From Roseibacillus persicicus (GTDB lineage: Bacteria; Verrucomicrobiota; Verrucomicrobiia; Verrucomicrobiales; Akkermansiaceae), in assembly GCF_014651675.1 (NCBI RefSeq), contig NZ_BMXI01000008.1, positions 62,001 to 126,000 on the forward strand: a DNA stretch of 64,000 nt, given 5' to 3'. The notes beneath the pieces are model-generated. The model made no database searches. It was not told the DNA's origin and saw only the letters and a list, made by a program, of their open reading frames with translations. Made by a program: the position numbers and the translations under genes. This document shows, in pieces, positions 50,479 through 60,442 of this stretch (positions are counted from its first letter, which is position 1; each line of letters opens with the position of its first letter).

Positions 50479-53400
50479 CTACCCCGCCTTGTTGTAGATA
50501 GACTCTCCTTCGTCCGGATATTTCTCAAGAACGTGTTGAAAAAGCATCCCGCACTTTTGCTCAAAGAGCTCGGCCGTGTATTTTTCAGGAAGACCGGCAT
50601 CGAGCATCTTCTCAATTTCAATCCGAACGGCAGCACGGGTGGTGCGCTTGTTGCGCCAGGCTAGCACTAGCAACTCCGTTTTGAGCTTCCCAAGGAGCTC
50701 CTTGCACACCTTTTTGATCGCCGCTGCTTCGCTTGGGTCCAATTCAGGGCCGGGACGAGTAAGGATGTCGAAGATGGCAAGCTGCTCTTCATTCACGTTT
50801 TCGCGTACATGCCGCTGCTCTTCTTCATTGAGGTCTTGGGACAGGTTCACCAATTCTTCAAAGAGCTGCTCGATGCTAAGGGCTCCGCTGTTGTATTGCT
50901 CGACCATCTTTTGGAAGCGGTCGAGGAAGTCGTAGCGACTGGCATTCAGTCGAATCATCTTGTCGAGCTTCCGCTCAATCAAGGCGCGGAGTTTTTGGGC
51001 TTCCGTGTTCTTGGTTTTGCTCTTCGCAAACTTCTTTTCCAAGACCCCAAAGTCAATGTTGCTAAGATCTACCACGGCGGCCTTCGCTCCCGCCACGACA
51101 GGAGAATCGGCCACAATACTCTCGTCAAGAACCTGAGAGATATCTGCCATCACCGCTGAAATATCGACCGGATCCCCCTGCGCTCGAATCGCCTTTGCCA
51201 GTTGATCAAGGACCTGACAAAGCGGAGCAAGAGTCGGAATAATGGGGTCCGGCATCACCGCCTTGTAGAGCCGCTGAATATCACGGTCATGTGCGAGGAA
51301 CTCATCCTTAACGGGGTCGGTGCGCAAAAGCTGGTTCACAGCGGGGACAAAGTGTGCGACCGAATCGCGCACCAGGGCTTCCAAGTCGACATTTTGTTTC
51401 CGGCAAAAGTCTCGCCCTTGCACCAAAGCTATCCGTAGCGCTTCGATCAACTCCGTCTTGTCCTTCACCGGCAGTTCGCCGCCGCCGCTACCTGAACCGT
51501 AAATGGCGAGCGCCTTTTCCAATTCAGCAAAGACATTGGCGTAGTCCACGATAAGCCCATTCACCTTTTCGCCATGGACCCGATTGGCTCGGGCGATGGT
51601 TTGCATCAAGGTGTGTCCTCGCATCGGCTTATCGAGATAAAGAGTCGAACAACTCGGGGCATCAAATCCGGTGAGCCACATCGCGCAGACGAAGACGAGA
51701 CGGAACTGGTCATCTGGATCCTTGAACTTGGTTTCCAAGTCTTCCTTCACCATCCGTTCGCGGTGGGGGAGAATGTCGAAGCCCTTGTCCTTCATTTCCG
51801 CAATCTCGTTCTGTCCCGAAGAGACCACCACCGCCATGTCGGTCTCTTGCAGATTGCGTAGGCGCTCGTTGAGTTGCCGGTGTTCGGGAAGCAGGGGACT
51901 TAGCGCCGCCATTCGAGTGATGACCCGCTCTTTCTCGGCCTCCCACTGCTCCCTCACTTTCTCGAACATCTTCAAGGTGGTTAGCTTGTCGATGGAGACC
52001 ACCATGGCCTTGCCTTGATAGCCGCGATTGAGGAAGTGGTGCACGATATCCTTCGCCACCGCATCCAGCCGTTCTTCGCGCGTGATGAGGTGATAGCGTT
52101 GGCCGAGAACCTTCTTCAGCTTCTCCTCCTGCTCGTCATCGAGCGCGGCTTCGTCGATGACCTGATAGATTTCCTCGTTCAGCTCGGGGTTGGTGATCTC
52201 CAACTCAGGGGTACGATTCTCATAGTAGAGCGGGACCGTGGCGCCGTCTTCCACACTTTGCTTGAAGTCGTAGATGCTCACGTAGTCGCCAAAGACTTCA
52301 CGCGTTCTCTCCTCGCCAGCAATCAGCGGCGTTCCAGTGAAGGCCACGAACTTCGCATTCGGCAAAGCGGTGCGCATGTTCATTGCCAGGGTGTCGTATT
52401 GACTGCGATGGGCCTCGTCGGTCAGTACGATGATGTCGTCGCGCTCGCTCAGCACCGGATGCAGCGTCCCTGGATCGGTGCGGAACTTGTGAATGAGGGT
52501 GAAGACATAGCGATGGTCTTCGCCGAGCAGCTTGCGCAAGTGGGTCGCACTCGTAGCCTGACACAGCTCACTCGCGGCTCCACAGGTGGAAAAGGTGCGG
52601 TAGATTTGGGTGTCCAGTTCTGTTCGGTCCGTGATGACCACAAAGGTCCAGTTCCCTGCCAGCTTGCGAAAGACCTTCTCGGCAAAGAAGACCATGGAGT
52701 AGCTCTTGCCGCTACCTTGTGTGTGCCAAAAGACCCCCACGCGACCATCCTCCGTGGTGCGGAGTGCTTCCACGGCTCGATTAACCCCAAGGAATTGGTG
52801 GTTGCGCGCCACCAACTTCCCGACTGCGCCCTTGTTCTCGGAAAAGCGAGTAAAGTTTTCCACCAAATCTAACAAGCGCGATTTCTCACACGTTCCCCGC
52901 AGCAAAGTCTTGAGCGAAATGTCGGGCACTTCTTCTTCCTCGGCCACTTTCTTCCAGTCTCCGAAGTGCTCCCACTCCGCCGTGAGGCTGCCGATCTTGC
53001 TTTGCACCCCATTGGAGACCAGCAGAAAGCCGTTGTAGTGAAAGAGCTGCGGAATGGCCCCCTTGTAGTCTGCCAGATTCTTGTCAAAGGCCTCCCGCAC
53101 ATTCACTCCCGGCTTCTTGAACTCAATCAGCACCAGCGGGAGCCCGTTCACAAAGCCAATCAAATCCGGTCGCCGCGTGTAGAGGTCACCGCTGATCCAG
53201 AACTGCGACACCAAGAGAAATTCATTCGCCGCCGCCTCGTCCCAATCAAAGACGCGCACCACCTCCATCCGTTGGCCACCCACCTCGCGGTCGGGGATAG
53301 TCACCTTCACGCCTCCACGCAGCAGCTTATCGATCTCGCGATTGCCTTCTACCAAACTCAGCGCCGAGCGGTCCCGCGTCAGTTCCTCCACCGCCGCATC

Positions 53401-53613
53401 CAGCGCCTCGGCGGGCAACTCTGGATTGAGCTTCTCCAGCACCGGCCGCAACCGCGCTACCAAGACCACCTCCCGCTTCGCCTCGCGTGCCAGACTACTC
53501 TTCCCCGAAGCCCACTCCCCAAACGCATTCACCGCCTCCCACCCCAACTCGTCCGCCATCAACTGAATGGCAGGCTGTTCGACGAGATGGTCTTCGGTGT
53601 AGGCGGACGACAT
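50479..53613 (-). CDS. hsdR: Type I restriction enzyme, R subunit
   Basis: 1044 aa, normal HsdR length. The nuclease core has P149-D150 and E164-F-K166 ('VLIEFKK'). The SF2 translocase has Walker A H297-TQGSGKS304 and DEAH at 399-402, with 'FVAFTGTPL' as motif III. Late helicase motif 'MWLTGFDAPSCSTLYLDKPMRGHTLMQTIARANR' is read in parts. The C-terminal HsdM-binding domain has coiled-coil character. It cuts DNA after translocation when the HsdS site is unmethylated. Unusually, four foreign genes separate it from hsdS; it has its own intergenic region with a palindromic array. Confidence 0.97.
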   Translation of the reverse strand: MSSAYTEDHLVEQPAIQLMADELGWEAVNAFGEWASGKSSLAREAKREVVLVARLRPVLEKLNPELPAEALDAAVEELTRDRSALSLVEGNREIDKLLRGGVKVTIPDREVGGQRMEVVRVFDWDEAAANEFLLVSQFWISGDLYTRRPDLIGFVNGLPLVLIEFKKPGVNVREAFDKNLADYKGAIPQLFHYNGFLLVSNGVQSKIGSLTAEWEHFGDWKKVAEEEEVPDISLKTLLRGTCEKSRLLDLVENFTRFSENKGAVGKLVARNHQFLGVNRAVEALRTTEDGRVGVFWHTQGSGKSYSMVFFAEKVFRKLAGNWTFVVITDRTELDTQIYRTFSTCGAASELCQATSATHLRKLLGEDHRYVFTLIHKFRTDPGTLHPVLSERDDIIVLTDEAHRSQYDTLAMNMRTALPNAKFVAFTGTPLIAGEERTREVFGDYVSIYDFKQSVEDGATVPLYYENRTPELEITNPELNEEIYQVIDEAALDDEQEEKLKKVLGQRYHLITREERLDAVAKDIVHHFLNRGYQGKAMVVSIDKLTTLKMFEKVREQWEAEKERVITRMAALSPLLPEHRQLNERLRNLQETDMAVVVSSGQNEIAEMKDKGFDILPHRERMVKEDLETKFKDPDDQFRLVFVCAMWLTGFDAPSCSTLYLDKPMRGHTLMQTIARANRVHGEKVNGLIVDYANVFAELEKALAIYGSGSGGGELPVKDKTELIEALRIALVQGRDFCRKQNVDLEALVRDSVAHFVPAVNQLLRTDPVKDEFLAHDRDIQRLYKAVMPDPIIPTLAPLCQVLDQLAKAIRAQGDPVDISAVMADISQVLDESIVADSPVVAGAKAAVVDLSNIDFGVLEKKFAKSKTKNTEAQKLRALIERKLDKMIRLNASRYDFLDRFQKMVEQYNSGALSIEQLFEELVNLSQDLNEEEQRHVRENVNEEQLAIFDILTRPGPELDPSEAAAIKKVCKELLGKLKTELLVLAWRNKRTTRAAVRIEIEKMLDAGLPEKYTAELFEQKCGMLFQHVLEKYPDEGESIYNKAG

Positions 53614-53682: not shown

Positions 53683-54600
53683 CTAGGAAACCTCTGATAA
53701 CCCTTTCAGGATGTAGGTCGTGCGCTTTCGGCCGTTACGGAATAGGACTGTAGTTTCCTCGAAGACGGCTTTGCACTGACGATCAAAGAACTCTCGATTG
53801 AGGTTCGCAACTTGTTCTGCTGATAGCTCGTCATCGATCTTCCCCGAGATTTTGTGAGCATCGTCAGTCATGAAGTCGAAGCGCCAAGACTCGAGAAGGA
53901 CCCCTTTAAAAATGCCTGTTTTCTCAACAGTCTCCGGGTTTGAGATGGTTGAATTAACCCGCTCGAAGGCTTCACTCGCCTGAATTGGATTCATCGTGCA
54001 GCGATAGTCTCCGCTCTCCAATCGGAGGCCCGCTTTTCCTCTAGCAACCACTTCTAGAAAAGAGCGGAGATTTTGAATTACCCGTGGTGCAGTATCATTC
54101 AATTCCGCAGCAAAGTCTTCATCGCTTTCTGCGGCCGATTCAACCAAACGCGAAACATGAGAAAGGGTATCAGCAAGTTGGTCTTCCTCAAAGATTTCAT
54201 CATTCTCGGCCTTGCTCAGTTCGAGACCGAAGGAGCCGCGTGGAAGGCCCGTCAGCAAGAGGCGAGAGTCAGCTTCACCAACCCGTCGCCCTCTGGAGCC
54301 TACCACTCCGTGATAACGGTCCGCATAATCTGCCATCACCATGCTTTGGAAGGGCTCCAAAACTCGCCCCGCAAAGGAAGCGTCAATTCCTTGCGATCCT
54401 TGCACTGGCTCACCCGAGAAAAAGAGAATGGTGCGGGCTTCCTTTCCGCCCAAAGGGATGGACTCGATCTGGGCCTTGAGCTCCTCTTCCCGTTCCGCGA
54501 AAGCTCCGGCCATCAGCGGGTGACCACCAGACAGCGCTTGCATTCGTCGCGTATCGACGAGCAAGGCGTTGAGCTTTTCGCGCTGGGTCCGTGAGGTCAT
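53683..54600 (-). CDS. Unrecognised 305-aa partner of the NTase-fold gene
   Basis: 305 aa, no signal peptide or membrane helix. An N-terminal helical segment (1-50, 'EKLNALLVDTRRMQALSGG') is followed by 'TILFFSGEPVQGSQGIDASFAGRVLEPFQSMV' in parts (about 58-90), an acidic helical stretch (130-170), and a C-terminal mixed domain ending 'FRNGRKRTTYILKGLSEV'. None of the usual HEPN Rx4-6H motif is visible. It begins 3 nt after the stop of the nucleotidyltransferase-like gene, so the two are surely co-expressed. I do not recognise the family; as NTase partners are often toxins or effectors, that is a reasonable hypothesis only. Confidence 0.8.
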   Translation of the reverse strand: MTSRTQREKLNALLVDTRRMQALSGGHPLMAGAFAEREEELKAQIESIPLGGKEARTILFFSGEPVQGSQGIDASFAGRVLEPFQSMVMADYADRYHGVVGSRGRRVGEADSRLLLTGLPRGSFGLELSKAENDEIFEEDQLADTLSHVSRLVESAAESDEDFAAELNDTAPRVIQNLRSFLEVVARGKAGLRLESGDYRCTMNPIQASEAFERVNSTISNPETVEKTGIFKGVLLESWRFDFMTDDAHKISGKIDDELSAEQVANLNREFFDRQCKAVFEETTVLFRNGRKRTTYILKGLSEVS

Positions 54601-54603
54601 TTC

Positions 54604-55155
54604 CTAGAGTTGCTGAAGTTTCTGAGCTGCCAAACTATCGTCCGAATCGGTATCGAGGTCAATTCTGAGCATTCCTTTCCAGACTCCTTGCCGATTGTGC
54701 GAAAAGAGCTGGGCCCAATAGCGAGACATCTCGACGGTGTTTGCGGGCTGGAAGCTGGCGTCCAAGGGGTAATGGTCCACCAAGTAATTTGCCTTGGAGA
54801 GCTGTGGGCTCCCGAATTCCGGAAACCGCTGAGCCAACCCTTGCTGAAAGGCGAGGTCATAGCCCCAATAGATCGTCACCAGATCCAAGTCATTGGGAGC
54901 CCGGCCTTCTTGAGTCTCGATATCTTCCAGAAAGCTTCCATCGAGCCACTGAAATCCCTGACGAAGTCCCTCGGTTCTCAGTCGTTCCCGGAACTTGAGA
55001 AAGCCATCTAGAATAGCCTTCCGTTCCGGGCTGGTGGCAAATTTGTCCACGAGCTCGACCGTGCTGCAGGGATACGGCGATAGATCCGAAAACTGAACCG
55101 GACTTCCCAGATGAGGCGGGAGAACGAGGTTGTGATCAAAGTCAGGAATAGCCAT
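54604..55155 (-). CDS. DUF6932-like nucleotidyltransferase-fold protein
   Basis: 183 aa. The DNA-polymerase-beta-type core is visible: D72-G-S-F75, then 14 residues later N88-D89-L-D91 ('APNDLDLVTIYW'), and a third acidic candidate at D127 or D132 ('VDHYPLDAS'). This is the GS...DxD pattern of minimal NTases, in the form 'GSFxED...RxPNDxDxVT' seen in DUF6932 proteins. It should transfer a nucleotide to a protein or RNA, as MntA-type antitoxins do. It lies directly upstream of the 305-aa gene (3-nt gap) and 73 bp after the HNH gene, inside the type I restriction operon. Confidence 0.8.
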   Translation of the reverse strand: MAIPDFDHNLVLPPHLGSPVQFSDLSPYPCSTVELVDKFATSPERKAILDGFLKFRERLRTEGLRQGFQWLDGSFLEDIETQEGRAPNDLDLVTIYWGYDLAFQQGLAQRFPEFGSPQLSKANYLVDHYPLDASFQPANTVEMSRYWAQLFSHNRQGVWKGMLRIDLDTDSDDSLAAQKLQQL

Positions 55156-55228: not shown

Positions 55229-56077
55229 TTAATCGGGGATGTTTTCAAAGCCACCAGCGCAGAACCAAGAGTCTGTGGCTGCGGTATCGTATAAGACTGC
55301 TTGCCACGAATTAGGCCTCGTGATTCGCAATGAGCGCGCTCTTCCCTCCAAGTCTTGCCTGACAGCGTCACTACCCCCAACTTCAAACAGTTCCTTAAAG
55401 AGCGGCTTTTGACCCACTAACTCTCCGGCAGCGTGATCAGAATATAATTGGCTCAGAGCTAGAGTCTTAAAATGGTAATTAGCTCTCTCGAACTTCGCTG
55501 CATCCCAATCGTGGGGTCTCTGGACATCGAATAACACCCCTACAGGATCACTTTGCACCATCTCTGCTCTTAGCCAAAAACCATCATCGAAGTCGTCATA
55601 GTAGGGGTGGAAGGTCTCAGTTTCACGGGAATTCGGATAGACTGCGCGCTTGTTGAAGTTGCAGTCCTTGCAGGACGGAACAAGATTTAAGGGGGTTACA
55701 ACAAGAGAGGAATGCCGAGATTCAGGCAGATAGTGATCTAACGTAGACGCATCTCGCTGCCCACATAGTGGACATCTCCGCTGAGGAGAAGATATCAATA
55801 TTTTATCGTATACAGAGCGCCCCGGCGCTCCACTCTTAGCCATTCGATTGGTATAAACCTTAAGAATCTCTTTCTTTGAAACTCCTTCAATGTCTTCTGA
55901 CGCCGATATCAGGTGCAATTTTCCTAGGGTTGCTTCGGCGTCGTATTCATCTGAAGCTCTCTCAACCGAGTCTTTTAGAGCTGACAATTTCCTCTTCAAG
56001 GCAACATTTCGAACTTTGCTAATACAAAGCTCGTAGGTCGTCCCAGCATCATGAGTGGGTTTAGGAAGACTCCTCAT
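55229..56077 (-). CDS. HNH endonuclease of ATPase/HNH pair (PtuB-like)
   Basis: 282 aa. The HNH core is C102-P-L-C105, D114-H115 ('TLDHYLPES'), N131 and C136-K-D-C139-N, a zinc-stabilised HNH nuclease. A helical N-terminal half (1-95) and a C-terminal domain of unknown fold surround it. Its start overlaps the end of the upstream ATPase gene by 17 bp, which implies coupled synthesis. The ATPase + HNH combination is the architecture of Septu (PtuA/PtuB) anti-phage systems. Base composition is visibly more AT-rich than in the flanking core genes, consistent with acquisition. Confidence 0.85.
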   Translation of the reverse strand: MRSLPKPTHDAGTTYELCISKVRNVALKRKLSALKDSVERASDEYDAEATLGKLHLISASEDIEGVSKKEILKVYTNRMAKSGAPGRSVYDKILISSPQRRCPLCGQRDASTLDHYLPESRHSSLVVTPLNLVPSCKDCNFNKRAVYPNSRETETFHPYYDDFDDGFWLRAEMVQSDPVGVLFDVQRPHDWDAAKFERANYHFKTLALSQLYSDHAAGELVGQKPLFKELFEVGGSDAVRQDLEGRARSLRITRPNSWQAVLYDTAATDSWFCAGGFENIPD

Positions 56078-57623
56078 TCTCAGCCTCCTTTCTTAAGAAC
56101 ATCACACGCAGAATGGCTCTAGCTTCGGCGCCAAGAGCCCCACCGAACTTTCGCACTGCCTGTTGATAGGATGATGAATCTCGAGCTGCTTCTCGAAGCA
56201 ATCGGTGGAAGCCCGCATCCGTCACCTCAAAACCGAAGACCTCCCTCGTCAGTATTCCTACGTTTTCTCCAAAGGTTTGGCATTCTAGCCTTTCTGCTTT
56301 GGCGGCGTGTCCTGAACGTTGGAGTTTCCAAACGCAATCTTGTGGGACTTCCTGAAGAACTACGGGTGAATGCGTCGCTATTATCGCTACTCCATTCCGA
56401 TCCGTGAGGAGATTCGAAAGCGCACGAATAAATGCAGACAAAAGAGGTGGGTGAAGATGTCCTTCCGGTTCATCGAGTAAAACTAAGGTCATCTCTTCCA
56501 CGGATTCAACTAGTCGAGTAATAGACAAGAGAACAATCTGATGTCCCGAACTTAGTTTTTTGAAGACCGCCTTAGCCTCCTCTTGATGTTCTTTTCTTGT
56601 AAGTTTCCCAATAAAACCTGTGATGCTGGCTGTTGCAAAAATAGGATCGCTCTCGAGTGTAATTAAAGCTGAGCGCCATCTGTTTGCTCTTGATCCAATT
56701 GAACATTCGATTGCGCTATTTACGAACTCGGTTGCCAAGCTTGCGGGGCTCTTCGTGCCAAGAGATTTGCCATCAATTTTTCTGATTCGTCGCAAACCTA
56801 TATATGAGAACTCCACCTCACCATTTTTTTCAAGCTCGTCAGGGGCCAAAGCAAAACCGTCAAAGGCGCTAAAGCAAACTGAAACCAGATTTGAGAAGGG
56901 AGCGTCGGTTCGCGAAGCGCGAGATAGCAGAGTTGCGAACTGCCCAGAACGCGCGGCAATGGAACGCTTTGCGACCAATGACTTAGTCATCAAGTTTAGC
57001 GTGTGTGTCTTGCCAACGCCATTGCGTCCAATGATCACGTGAATATTTGATGGTGGAGATGACTCTGGTTCCACTTCAAACGTCATCTTGACTTCAGCAC
57101 TTCCATGAGCCTCTCTCTTCGGTGCCGTGTAGCTAAAATTGAATTTGGTTAGACGGGCTCCTCCTTGGGTAATACGATGAAACTGCCCTTCGATTTCTGT
57201 TCTGCTGACGGAACGAAGAAGCGAAACTTTTGTTACTCGTTCCTTGGCGGCTCGTTGCCAAAGAGTAAGGTCAGCGGCGACATCATTCATTGAGGAAAGG
57301 AATGATTTTCGAAAGGATTCACCTATTTTGTTTAGGTTGTCATAGTACTCGTCGTCTTGCCCCAGCGAAAAGTAGAGCTCTTCAAGAGCAGCGAAGTTTG
57401 CAGGAATATCAGGTCGGCTCAGACTACCCATCTGGAACTTGCCAATTTTTACTGAGCCTATCCGTTGTCTCTCCTCCAGCTCATCATAAAAGTAGGCTGT
57501 ATACATTGTATTGAAGGTGAACCAGTCGTCCCAGCCGTGCTCAACGAGAACAACAAGGTTAGGAGCCGCCTCGATGTCGCTGAAGCTTTCTACTACTTTG
57601 AACTGTAATTCTTGGGCGGGCAT
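56061..57623 (-). CDS. SMC/ABC-type AAA ATPase (PtuA-like)
   Basis: 520 aa. Walker A is G199-RNGVGKT206 ('VIIGRNGVGKTHTL'), the ABC-like signature LSSGHQ lies at 357-362, Walker B 'LVLLDEPEGHLHPP' at 380-393, and the switch His in 'ATHSPVVLQEV' at 418. This is the OLD/RecF-SMC type of AAA_15/AAA_21 ATPase used by many defence systems. A roughly 190-residue N-terminal region precedes Walker A, unusual for PtuA, where the P-loop sits near the start. Partner of the overlapping HNH gene. First of the four genes inserted behind hsdS (15-bp gap). Confidence 0.88.
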   Translation of the reverse strand: MPAQELQFKVVESFSDIEAAPNLVVLVEHGWDDWFTFNTMYTAYFYDELEERQRIGSVKIGKFQMGSLSRPDIPANFAALEELYFSLGQDDEYYDNLNKIGESFRKSFLSSMNDVAADLTLWQRAAKERVTKVSLLRSVSRTEIEGQFHRITQGGARLTKFNFSYTAPKREAHGSAEVKMTFEVEPESSPPSNIHVIIGRNGVGKTHTLNLMTKSLVAKRSIAARSGQFATLLSRASRTDAPFSNLVSVCFSAFDGFALAPDELEKNGEVEFSYIGLRRIRKIDGKSLGTKSPASLATEFVNSAIECSIGSRANRWRSALITLESDPIFATASITGFIGKLTRKEHQEEAKAVFKKLSSGHQIVLLSITRLVESVEEMTLVLLDEPEGHLHPPLLSAFIRALSNLLTDRNGVAIIATHSPVVLQEVPQDCVWKLQRSGHAAKAERLECQTFGENVGILTREVFGFEVTDAGFHRLLREAARDSSSYQQAVRKFGGALGAEARAILRVMFLRKEAENEESS

Positions 57624-57638
57624 ATCACCAGATGGGAT

Positions 57639-58835
57639 CTATTTAATGCCTTGACGAGGGCTTAGGAGTTTCGGGAGAAGGAGGTCGCGGGTTTGGCGGA
57701 GGGTTTGGTTGCGGCGTTCAAGAGAATAGACTGAGCGAACAATTTTTTCCGCAAAGACTCCGAACGCGCTACAAATTTCAGTGGGAGGAACTAGAAGGTT
57801 TTTTGCGATGAATTCAGGCCAGTGGCCTTTGTAGTCGTTAAATTCGATCAAGTCCTTTGTGGCCCAGTGCAGCCAATAGAGGTTTCGTGCCAAATCAGGC
57901 GCTGAACGAAAAGGGAGAACGTTTTGAATTGCCGAAAAGGGATACTGAATAATCCGCTGGTAGCAGGTGTGGTTAGCGAAGACGATCACAGGATTGTCCT
58001 CGGTGGCAACAAAACCAGGTTCATCGTTGTGATAGCCAATGATTCCAGATTTTCCTTGGTCGAGAACAGGGATAGCCCCCGTCTCATCGACTGTTTTCTG
58101 ACTGTATTTCTTTCCTGCTGGGAATCTTTTTAGCGCATCTTCGACCGTCTTCACCTCCCACCCGTCTGGAATCGGGCCGAGGGGGGAGTTGGTGAGGGTG
58201 AGTTTGGGGGGGAGGCCGGCTTGGGTGAGGACTTCGGGGGGGATGCGGAAGTGGACGAACCACTCGCGGTAGAGGGATTGCGCCATCTCCTCCAGAATCC
58301 GGATGCGCCGCAGGTTGTTCTCAATCAGTTCGTCGTAGGCCGAGAGGATGCCTGCGATTCGGCGTTGGGTGGGGAGGTCTGCGTGATATTGAATCTGATG
58401 AACGCGTAACTGGCCTAGCCCGAGAAAGGGCTGAGCAGATCCAGTCTTCGTCCCTTTCGCGAGAGCTTGAAACTGTGGGCTTACAACAAGGTAGTAGAGG
58501 TAACGTCCATCAATCTTCTTTGGGTCCGGCTTAAAGAGAGCAACATTTTTGATGCTGAACTCACGTTTCGTGCGCACAAGTGCGGCCTCGCCCAACGAAG
58601 CTCCAATGTGGGCAAAAAGTGTATCGAACTGCTCAGGCTTTGATCGTGCGATGACCTTCCTGTGGTCGGGCTCGGAAATCTGATCGCAAGTTTCAAAGTC
58701 GATCGTTCCTCCTACAATCTCCTTCGCTTTAACTAGCGGAAATCCTTCTTCCACCCTTTTGGGCGTATCGTGTGTTCCATCAGTTACTAAGGAGCAAACA
58801 TCAGCGAGGGCGGTAGTAGTGAGTCTATTTTTCAT
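57639..58835 (-). CDS. hsdS: Type I restriction enzyme, specificity subunit
   Basis: 398 aa with two target-recognition domains: TRD1 about 5-165 ('[31 protein letters not shown]') and TRD2 about 210-365 ('[23 protein letters not shown]'). They are separated by the helical spacer '[39 protein letters not shown]' and followed by a second helix at the end. TRD regions are more AT-rich than the spacer, as expected for exchanged cassettes. It directs methylation and cleavage to a bipartite site that cannot be predicted from sequence. Overlaps hsdM by 4 nt. Confidence 0.96.
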
Positions 58836-60442
58836 ACCGTCTCCAAAATTTCTAACACGTTCTCTGCAATCTTTTCCTCCAACTCCCGCGCTTCGCCGTT
58901 CAGGACTTCGAGCTCGTCGTTGAGTGCAACGAATTGTTCTTTGAAGTCTTGGTCGCTGAGTTCTTCGCCTTTGGCGACGCCGACGTAGCGGCCGGGGTTG
59001 AGGGACCAGCCTTGCGCTTCGATTTCGGCGCGGGTGGCGGCTTTGCAGAGGCCGGGGATGTCTTTGAATTGTGAATTTTGACGAGTGAGTGGTGAATTGT
59101 CGGAGGGGTCTCCGAAGACTTCGCGGAATTTGGGTTCGGAGCCGTGGTGGAATTCGAGGTCTTGGCCGCGATAGAGGCGGACGACGTTGGCGAGGAATTC
59201 GTTTTGGGCGGGGGTGAAGTCGCGGTGGGCGCGGTCGAGTTGGCGGAAGACGTGGCGGGCGTCGAGGAAGAGGACGGTGTCTTCGCGCGGGGTGCCGGTT
59301 TTTCCTTTGTCCAAGAACCAGAGGGTGCAGGGCAGGGTGACGGTGAAGAAGAAGTTGGATCCGATGCTAACCATGACGTCGACGTGGCCGCTGCGGATGA
59401 GCTTTTCGCGGATGTCTTGCTCGGAGGCGCGGGCGTCGGCGGCGGAATTGGCCATGACGAATCCGGCCCGGCCCCGGGGACTGAGCGCGGAGTGGAAGTG
59501 CTGAACCCAGAGGTAGTTGCCATTGTCGGTGCGCGGCAGGCCAAGGGGATAGCGCGGGTCGTCGGCGAGGCGTTCTTTATCGATCTTGCTGACGTTGAAG
59601 GGTGGGTTGGCGAGCACGAAGTCGAAGCGCCCCACGGAGTCGTGGAGGTCTTCGTAGTAGGTATTGCCCTGCCGGATGTCGCCACTGAGCCCGTGCACCG
59701 CGAGGTTGAGGCGGGCGAGGCGGCTGGTGTCGGTGACGCGCTCTTGGCCGTGGACCGAGATTTCGGCAGTGGGGTTCTGGTGATGCTCAGCAACGAAGCG
59801 AGCGGATTGAACGAACATGCCGCCGGACCCACAAGCGGGGTCGTAGATGCGGCCATGGTAGGGTTCGAGAATATCGACGATGAGGCGGACGATGGAAGTG
59901 GGGGTGTAGAACTCGCCGCCCTTTTGTCCCTCGGACATCGCGAACTTGCCAAGGAAGTATTCGTAGATGAGCCCGAAGGTGTCGCCTTCCTGATCCATGG
60001 GGATGGAGGCCATGACCTTGAGGAGTTCAGCGAGGGTGCGGTTCTCGAGGATTTGGAAGGTCTTGGGTAGAACGTCGGCAAGGTCGGGGTTTTCCTTTTC
60101 CACCGCCCGCATGGCCTCGTTGACCGCTTTGCCCAGTGCGGAGCCTTCGGGGAGTTGGAGGAGATGGGGAAAGCGGGCTTCCTCGGGTAGATAGAGCACG
60201 CCCTTGGCATGGTAGTCGGTGGGGCCAATCTTGCGGCGGGAGCCGGGCTTGGGCTGAATCTCCTCGGCGACGGCAGCGAAGCGGGTCTCGGCATAGCGCA
60301 AGAAGATGAGGCCGAGGACAATGGGGGAGAATTCGGAGGGCTTGAGGGCGGCATTGGCCCAGAGGCTATTGGCAGCGTCCCAAAGGGTTTTTTCGAGCTC
60401 GGCGTGGGAGTCGTCGGCAGTCGCGGGTTCGGTCCAGTGCAT
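58832..60442 (-). CDS. hsdM: Type I restriction enzyme, methyltransferase subunit
   Basis: 536 aa N6-adenine methyltransferase. The helical HsdM N domain occupies about 15-150. SAM-binding motif I is [10 protein letters not shown] at 201-210 and the catalytic motif IV is N279-PPF282. '[27 protein letters not shown]' (about 166) is the usual pre-motif-I region. The C-terminal tail is a Glu-rich helix that contacts HsdS. It is the first gene of the island operon (hsdM-hsdS-ATPase-HNH-NTase-305aa-hsdR). Confidence 0.97.

What the first reader, a model, noticed from the sequence alone, without database searches (positions are those of the whole stretch)
55229..57623. Septu-like ATPase/HNH pair with an unusual 190-residue N-terminal region on the ATPase
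ATPase with Walker A at 199-206, LSSG signature, Walker B and switch His, plus an overlapping HNH nuclease gene, matches the PtuA/PtuB plan. Usual PtuA proteins have the P-loop near the N-terminus; the extension here could be a sensor or assembly domain, making this a variant.
Basis: partly seen in the sequence, partly recalled or inferred. Interest (0 to 1): 0.68.

Follow-up and report, generated by a model that had tools for sequence, protein, structure and literature searches.

The report
Bacterial relative of lambda Ea59/Ea31 pair
Two overlapping genes inside a restriction-modification operon encode an ATPase and an HNH-type nuclease that are relatives of the little-studied Ea59 and Ea31 proteins of phage lambda, so this is probably a two-part anti-phage nuclease of an already catalogued family, and the "unusual" front part of the ATPase is normal for that family.

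Summary
In detail: a 520-aa ABC-type ATPase (Walker A 199-206, LSSGH, Walker B, switch His) overlaps by 17 nt an intact 282-aa HNH gene. The reading is half right. The pair resembles Septu PtuA/PtuB but belongs to a different, known family: phage lambda Ea59/Ea31 (Ea59 39% identity over residues 6-513), catalogued by PADLOC as candidate PDC-M01. The N-terminal extension is real (about 155-160 residues; 160-198 already belong to the ATPase core) but not unusual: nearly all sampled members have it, and an HNH partner follows in 79 of 80 genome loci (the other ends at a contig edge). Septu PtuA starts where the extension ends, and a tree of the ATPase core separates the two (100/98). Folded alone, the extension gives a confident model (pLDDT 94) with no significant match among solved structures: the main open point. 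Here the pair is a low-GC cassette between hsdS and hsdR; a Sulfurimonas operon carries Hachiman plus the same pair there. A 1994 paper title reports an ea59-like phage-resistance gene in Streptomyces lividans. Most likely an ATP-gated two-subunit anti-phage nuclease; nothing was tested at the bench. New member of a known kind.

The parts
56061..57623 (-). Ea59-type ABC ATPase, 520 aa
   Evidence: 39% identity over residues 6-513 to lambda Ea59; PADLOC PDC-M01A 7.9e-198; AF2 model pLDDT 92, pTM 0.89
57159..57623 (-). N-terminal domain, residues 1-155 (five strands then five helices), absent from Septu PtuA
   Evidence: folds alone with pLDDT 93.9, pTM 0.89; W31 D33 S86 G88 Y94 D114 R137 invariant in 77 sequences; no PDB fold match at E 0.001, best VIA Z 3.2
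57006..57029 (-). Walker A GRNGVGKT, residues 199-206
   Evidence: N201 G204 K205 invariant in 78 sequences
56463..56486 (-). Walker B LVLLDEPE, residues 380-387
   Evidence: D384 E385 P386 E387 invariant in 78 sequences
55229..56077 (-). Ea31-type HNH endonuclease, 282 aa, overlaps the ATPase gene by 17 nt
   Evidence: PADLOC PDC-M01B 2.7e-99; phmmer to lambda Ea31 1e-28; C102 C105 D114 H115 C136 C139 invariant in 73 sequences
58832..60442 (-). hsdM, type I DNA methyltransferase (context: first gene of the operon)
57639..58835 (-). hsdS, type I specificity subunit (context)
50479..53613 (-). hsdR, type I restriction subunit (context: last gene of the operon)
   Evidence: TIGR00348 1.5e-148, over cut-off

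Best explanation
The pair is a bacterial Ea59/Ea31-family (PDC-M01) module: a two-subunit, ATP-controlled nuclease that most likely protects the cell from phages. Shown by sequence and model: the ATPase is an intact ABC-type ATPase with an added N-terminal domain, coupled to an intact HNH nuclease gene; both are relatives of lambda Ea59 and Ea31 along their length; the two genes are the conserved unit. Inferred: the ATPase forms ATP-bound dimers or larger assemblies as PtuA does, holds the HNH subunit, and uses nucleotide state plus a phage cue, perhaps read by the N-terminal domain, to switch the HNH nuclease on; the HNH cuts nucleic acid, more likely DNA (as cited for the lambda enzyme) than tRNA (as reported for some PtuAB). 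The cassette sits in the hsd operon because that is a slot for defence genes and shares its transcript; it is not a part of the type I enzyme.
For: Relation to lambda Ea59/Ea31, and lambda's pair hits the same PADLOC models (3.9e-201 and 5.8e-113). HNH partner follows the ATPase in 79 of 80 genome loci. Catalytic motifs invariant in 78 ATPases and 73 HNH proteins. Nearest solved folds of the ATPase are Septu and retron PtuA (Foldseek E from 4.9e-9; the first 18 VIA rows, Z 14.3-16.9), a two-component defence nuclease in which Walker and HNH mutations abolish immunity (PMC13096335, passages). Defence genes beside it: type I RM here, pAgo in G046, HamA/HamB in L057. Literature: title of Zhou et al. 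1994, S. lividans phage-resistance gene similar to the lambda ea59 endonuclease gene; lambda endonuclease of Benchimol et al. 1982 cited as single-stranded-DNA-dependent; ea59 labelled ATP-dependent endonuclease in a 2023 table. No third gene recurs: largest cluster of upstream neighbours 3 of 41, no cluster among 29 downstream.
Against: No anti-phage or nuclease test of this pair exists. The 1982 and 1994 papers were not held; only titles, one citing sentence that does not name Ea59, and one table label were seen, and nothing seen says that the activity needs Ea31. In the lambda protein interaction map (PMC3224144, passages) Ea59 has only one interaction and Ea31 is not mentioned, so no Ea59-Ea31 contact is supported there. 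Neighbours were scanned for defence genes in only 5 loci; 3 of them (L014, L021, L027, one gene each) gave nothing. VIA Z of the weakest PtuA rows is tied with other ABC ATPases (from Z 14.2). The HNH protein and the complex were not modelled. lambda itself carries the pair, so a role in phage biology remains possible.
Confidence: 0.6

Rival explanations
1. It is a true Septu (PtuAB) system whose PtuA has simply gained an N-terminal domain.
For: A PADLOC model labelled PtuA (PDLC00282) matches residues 9-517 at 2.8e-183; PtuA structures are the nearest folds; in a Bacillus cereus survey 41 loci were called both Septu and PDC-M01 in the PADLOC data (PMC11811056, passages); the HNH core resembles PtuB (hhalign E 3.9e-9 over 82 columns).
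Against: That PtuA model is itself Ea59-type: lambda Ea59 scores 610.8 bits on it. Ordinary PtuA (P-loop at residue 30-55, about 430 aa, about 220-aa PtuB) forms a separate group; tree split 100/98. Far below the cut-off of NCBIfam NF041760 PtuA (48.4 of 500 bits; that model is the retron Ec78 form).
Confidence: 0.2
2. It is an accessory nuclease of the type I restriction system, working with HsdM/S/R.
For: It lies between hsdS and hsdR in one gene string; type I genes lie within 10 kb in 6 of 80 genome loci (two of them by hsdM alone), with 4-nt overlaps in L057 (HNH/hsdR) and L084 (hsdR/ATPase).
Against: 74 of 80 loci show no type I gene by this test (the window's proteins as single queries and flanks cut at contig ends, so some can be missed); the 5 kb of lambda that I fetched has none; GC3 0.44-0.46 against 0.78 for hsdM and 0.70 for hsdR marks it as a later insertion; L057 carries Hachiman in the same slot.
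Confidence: 0.08
3. The pair cleaves host tRNA and stops growth, as reported for retron Eco7 PtuAB and Septu EcB88, rather than cutting DNA.
For: Two PtuAB relatives act on tRNA-Tyr (PMC11555353, PMC13096335; passages and abstract starts).
Against: [quoted passage not shown] PtuAB of another Septu is reported to target nicked DNA.
Confidence: 0.25
4. It is a phage-derived gene pair with a role in phage DNA metabolism, kept here by chance and not defensive.
For: lambda and related phages carry it; lambda ea59 and ea31 are scored non-essential, and no function beyond endonuclease was stated in the passages I read.
Against: Spread over chromosomes of several bacterial phyla, beside defence genes in the loci named above; the title of the 1994 S. 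lividans paper.
Confidence: 0.12

Closest known systems
Phage lambda Ea59 / Ea31 (NC_001416 25396-26973 and 24509-25399)
   Same: ATPase related from end to end (39% identity, N-terminal domain included), HNH partner directly downstream with overlapping genes (4 nt in lambda, 17 nt here), same PADLOC families.
   Different: Host: a bacterial type I RM operon instead of a phage; HNH only 26% identical to Ea31.
PADLOC PDC-M01 (PDC-M01A/PDC-M01B)
   Same: Best models for both proteins, end to end (7.9e-198; 2.7e-99).
   Different: No difference seen in these scans; PDC-M01 is listed as a candidate system.
Septu PtuA/PtuB (and retron Ec78/Ec83 PtuAB)
   Same: ABC ATPase plus downstream HNH; PtuA is the nearest solved fold for residues about 157-520; HNH cores related.
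   Different: Septu PtuA lacks the 155-residue N-terminal domain and has its P-loop near residue 30-55; PtuB is about 220 aa in the viral loci examined; separate branch of the ATPase tree.
S. lividans phage-resistance gene of Zhou et al. 1994
   Same: Described in its title as a phage-resistance gene similar to the lambda ea59 endonuclease gene.
   Different: Only the title was seen; its sequence was not compared.

Membership tests
lambda Ea59/Ea31 family (PDC-M01) | ATPase alignable end to end with lambda Ea59, N-terminal domain included | tested here: met
   39% over 6-513; A1 alignment; N-terminal 155 aa alone hits PDC-M01A 4.1e-44
lambda Ea59/Ea31 family (PDC-M01) | Ea31-type HNH gene directly downstream | tested here: met
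   PDC-M01B 2.7e-99 over residues 1-279; 17-nt overlap
lambda Ea59/Ea31 family (PDC-M01) | Intact Walker A, LSSG, Walker B, switch His and HNH residues | tested here: met
lambda Ea59/Ea31 family (PDC-M01) | ATP-linked endonuclease / phage resistance | not testable with these tools
   bench assay needed; literature seen as titles, a citing sentence and a table label
Septu (PtuAB) | ABC ATPase followed by an HNH nuclease gene | tested here: met
Septu (PtuAB) | PtuA of ordinary length with the P-loop near the N-terminus | tested here: not met
   P-loop at 199 here; 30-55 in 14 of the 15 non-Ea59 loci of the viral set (the 15th is a fragment), four of which were checked as PtuA by PADLOC; Walker A lysine is K43 in Septu EcB88 PtuA
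Septu (PtuAB) | ATPase core grouping with PtuA | tested here: not met
   39 Ea59-type rows split from 10 short PtuA-type rows (4 checked in PADLOC) and 4 other rows at 100/98; one PtuA group sampled, retron PtuA not included, long branches present
Septu (PtuAB) | PtuB-family HNH | tested here: inconclusive
   best 25 of 49 PADLOC matches are all PDC-M01B, the other 24 were not shown; only the HNH core aligns with seven PtuB, E 3.9e-9
Septu (PtuAB) | PADLOC PtuA model match | tested here: inconclusive
   PDLC00282 2.8e-183, but lambda Ea59 scores 610.8 bits on the same model
Type I restriction-modification subunit | Constant association with hsd genes | tested here: not met
   hsd genes within 10 kb in 6 of 80 loci by phmmer with the window's proteins

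The most novel reading that the evidence does not exclude
Ea59/Ea31 is a class of ABC-ATPase/HNH phage-defence nuclease distinct from Septu, defined by a conserved N-terminal domain that serves as the infection sensor or assembly platform and has no solved structural relative; phage lambda carries one as a weapon against competing phages, which would give a function to two long-orphan lambda genes.
Probability: 0.33. Interest if true: 0.65.

Novelty: new member of a known kind. Interest (0 to 1): 0.4.

Why it matters
It ties a catalogued defence candidate (PDC-M01), some loci of which are also called Septu, to two lambda genes whose purpose was not stated in anything I read, and shows that the two-gene unit with its extra domain is a coherent family of its own. 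That gives a simple test in laboratory E. coli: the lambda pair, or the pair found in 90 of 5426 E. coli genomes. The insertion of the pair, and of Hachiman in one relative, between hsdS and hsdR fits the idea that type I operons act as slots for defence cassettes.

Tried and rejected
Rejected: that the extension is a peculiarity of this protein; that all 190 residues are extra (from about 160 they belong to the core); that the pair is plain Septu; that it depends on the type I system; that a third gene belongs to the unit (which looked only at the longest co-directional frame of 100 aa or more within 250 nt on each side).

Led nowhere: single-protein scan of viral contigs (nothing confirmed); PDB sequence search with the N-terminal profile (seven weak, apparently unrelated sequences, best E 0.0096 over 28 positions); Pfam scan of 77 N-terminal domains (none for the window, no family in more than 2 of 77 at E 0.1); PDB, VIA and BFVD fold searches of the N-terminal domain (best PDB E 0.19; best VIA Z 3.2, rmsd 3.2, 70 residues, in a Legionella deamidase-type protein; best BFVD E 8e-3 on a 57-residue protein). 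These absences do not show a new fold. The first tree used wrong open frames for L014, L102 and L144 and was discarded; the second also drops L177 and L182, and lacks loci for which the script found no suitable frame (L067, L006-L010, L012). The hsdR density check (52 of 96 genomes drawn from the window's phylum over the cut-off) uses other genomes than the 80 loci, so no enrichment near the pair is claimed from it.

Full report
Observation. The window holds, on the minus strand, one gene string hsdM (58832-60442), hsdS (57639-58835), ATPase (56061-57623), HNH (55229-56077), a DUF6932 gene (54604-55155), a 305-aa gene (53683-54600) and hsdR (50479-53613). Gaps in that order are -4, 15, -17, 73, 3 and 69 nt.

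What it is. The ATPase matches PADLOC PDC-M01A end to end (7.9e-198; residues 7-515 on 2-508 of 510), and the HNH protein matches PDC-M01B end to end (2.7e-99; residues 1-279 on 1-280 of 282). A tblastn search of 50,697 phage records found 25 at E up to 1e-5; most of the 20 listed are lambda or its derivatives, with 39% identity over residues 6-513. In lambda the match is Ea59, and the next gene, overlapping by 4 nt, is Ea31, annotated HNH endonuclease. The window's HNH protein is 26% identical to Ea31 in a ten-row alignment, with the cysteines and the D-H and N residues shared; phmmer E 1e-28. Run through PADLOC, lambda Ea59 and Ea31 hit the same families (PDC-M01A 3.9e-201 by the same model, PDC-M01B 5.8e-113 by a sister model). 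The plasmid collection holds 64 records of 72,556 with a relative at E up to 1e-20, 59 of them with at least 80% of the query in one place. Among the window's genome and 57 related ones, only one other (G046) has a match over most of the length; 15 of 58 have any match at E 0.001. The family is patchy, as defence genes are.

Is the N-terminal region unusual? No. In the 69 of 80 whose P-loop fits a strict motif its median position is residue 196 (the extremes, 30 and 335, are a short frame and an over-long start). In 77 N-terminal sequences W31, D33, S86, G88, Y94, D114 and R137 are invariant. An Ea31-type HNH gene follows the ATPase in 79 of 80 loci: 75 directly by script, L051, L066 and L098 on inspection because the script chose an upstream start, and L070 with the HNH frame broken in two; L062 ends 135 nt after the ATPase. 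L089, counted among the 75, holds only 81 residues of the HNH gene before its contig ends.

Difference from Septu. An alignment-based scan of viral contigs returned 80 loci. By script, 65 (L103-L167) are Ea59-type: 62 of 65 have the HNH gene adjacent and the ATPase frame of the other 3 runs to the end of the stretch; the N-terminal profile is found in 58 of 65, weakly (5e-6) in five of these (L163-L167); of the 7 misses 4 are ATPase fragments and 3 (L158, L161, L162) are a divergent subgroup with a long N-terminal part of their own. The other 15 (L168-L182) have the P-loop at 30-55 in 14 (the fifteenth is a fragment), no N-terminal match in 15 of 15, and an HNH gene found by the Ea31 profile in 7 of 15. 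Four of the 15 were checked in PADLOC and are PtuA, and the three partners tested are PtuB. The N-terminal profile was not found in any open frame without the ATPase in those 80 loci. A tree of the ATPase core alone (53 rows, 397 columns) puts the 39 Ea59-type rows on one side of a 100/98 branch, against ten short PtuA-type and four other ATPases; long branches meet on the other side, only one PtuA group is sampled and no retron PtuA is in it. Profile comparison of the Ea59-type ATPase with seven PtuA aligns only the Walker B/switch stretch (columns 381-477, E 6.7e-16), the N-terminal part alone gives nothing, and the HNH proteins share only the HNH core with PtuB (E 3.9e-9 over 82 columns).

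Structure. AlphaFold2 with 78 sequences gave pLDDT 92 and pTM 0.89. Foldseek ranks retron and Septu PtuA first (E from 4.9e-9; TM-scores of those rows 0.24-0.45, with high rmsd over long alignments). In VIA-align the first 18 of 50 rows are PtuA (Z 14.3-16.9), led by 8ee4_F (Z 16.9, rmsd 3.6, 248 aligned, model 161-472); 8eea_C has Z 16.4, rmsd 6.3, 297 aligned, model 160-519 on chain 1-460; retron PtuAs begin at model residue 147-158. The first other ABC protein is at Z 14.2, so the weakest PtuA rows are tied with the general ABC fold. The Septu protein thus begins where the extension ends. Residues 1-155 alone fold with pLDDT 93.9 and pTM 0.89 as five strands followed by five helices. No PDB match reaches E 0.001 (best 0.19), VIA's best is Z 3.2, and BFVD's best is E 8e-3 on a 57-residue protein. 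This is a domain without a relative found by these searches, not proof of a new fold.

Setting. GC at third positions is 0.44 (ATPase) and 0.46 (HNH) against 0.78 (hsdM), 0.70 (hsdR), 0.56 (hsdS), 0.60 (DUF6932) and 0.55 (305-aa gene), as for a cassette brought in later. Type I genes, sought with the window's own proteins at E 1e-8, lie within 10 kb in 6 of 80 genome loci: L027 and L094 (hsdM alone), L057, L064, L078, L084. L057 (Sulfurimonas) has hsdM, another gene, hsdS (weak, 9e-8), HamA and HamB of Hachiman, the pair, then hsdR, with the HNH gene and hsdR overlapping by 4 nt. In G046, a genome of the same order, the pair follows a pAgo gene. Neighbours were scanned in PADLOC for five loci only; L014, L021 and L027 (one gene each) gave no match. 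No third gene recurs: of 41 upstream co-directional neighbours the largest cluster has 3 members, and the 29 downstream ones form no cluster. In the tree, lambda Ea59 is sister to L084 of Alcanivorax, which directly follows an hsdR gene (100/97). Pairs like L016 are in 90 of 5426 complete E. coli genomes. Lambda's own ea59-ea31 DNA matches in 91 of 5426, at 80% coverage or more in 68; some of the 12 hosts listed are laboratory strains.

How it likely works. By analogy with PtuAB, where Walker and HNH mutations abolish immunity (PMC13096335, passages), the ATPase probably forms nucleotide-bound dimers or larger assemblies that hold and gate the HNH nuclease. The N-terminal domain, which Septu lacks, is the best candidate for sensing or assembly; that is inference. 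The target is open: PtuAB of retron Eco7 depletes tRNA-Tyr, retron Eco4 from the same group likely does not target tRNA, and PtuAB of a Septu is reported to act on nicked DNA (PMC11555353, passages). [quoted passage not shown] that sentence does not name Ea59, and the link rests on the label ATP-dependent endonuclease for ea59 in a table (PMC10695390, passage), on the words "ea59 endonuclease gene" in the 1994 title, and on my recall. I lean to DNA. [quoted passage not shown] 1994), seen only in the reference list of PMC2653506. The lambda interaction map (PMC3224144, passages) gives Ea59 one interaction and does not mention Ea31, so it lends no support to a complex.

What is in print. PDC-M01 occurs in 2 papers of the library; in one, read in passages, 41 loci were called both Septu and PDC-M01 in the PADLOC data (PMC11811056). 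My searches for ea59/ea31 listed no title or abstract start that links lambda Ea59/Ea31 to PDC-M01 or Septu; one search listed 30 of 53 papers and one search listed 20 of 32, the library lacks most subscription papers, and I read passages only, so this is a statement about those listings alone.

Verdict. A new member of a known kind: a bacterial Ea59/Ea31 (PDC-M01) pair lodged in a type I RM operon. It works like Septu in plan but should not be filed as Septu. The open items of interest are the N-terminal domain and the untested idea that lambda carries the same module for phage-phage competition.

Noticed in passing
window 53683-55155: Between the HNH gene and hsdR lie a DUF6932 gene (PADLOC PDC-M63A 2.1e-13) and a 305-aa gene (PDC-M63B only 0.035; phrog_18731 3.8e-28): apparently a second embedded two-gene cassette of unknown function.
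   Followed up: partly
L057 2369-15377: Sulfurimonas type I operon carries Hachiman HamA/HamB and the Ea59/Ea31 pair between hsdS and hsdR: two defence cassettes in the same slot as in the window.
   Followed up: partly
L183 8770-13638: In genome G046 the pair directly follows a pAgo gene (PDLC02384, 1324 bits), in a likely defence island.
   Followed up: no
L158, L161-L167: A divergent Ea59-type subgroup with the P-loop near residue 225 and an N-terminal part that barely matches the family profile or not at all; L158 and L162, the two scanned, fit PADLOC PDC-M01A PDLC04242 best.
   Followed up: partly
L070 11454-13735: HNH gene split into two frames about 1.1 kb apart, apparently by an insertion, next to an intact ATPase gene.
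   Followed up: no
L081, L083, L090: A conserved gene of about 1630 aa lies within 4 nt of the ATPase start in three Alphaproteobacteria-type genomes.
   Followed up: no
hits H82-H84 (two DE3-type E. coli strains and strain LB19b): The match keeps only the first 870 nt of lambda ea59, about 290 residues: the N-terminal domain and Walker A but no Walker B and no ea31 in that place.
   Followed up: no
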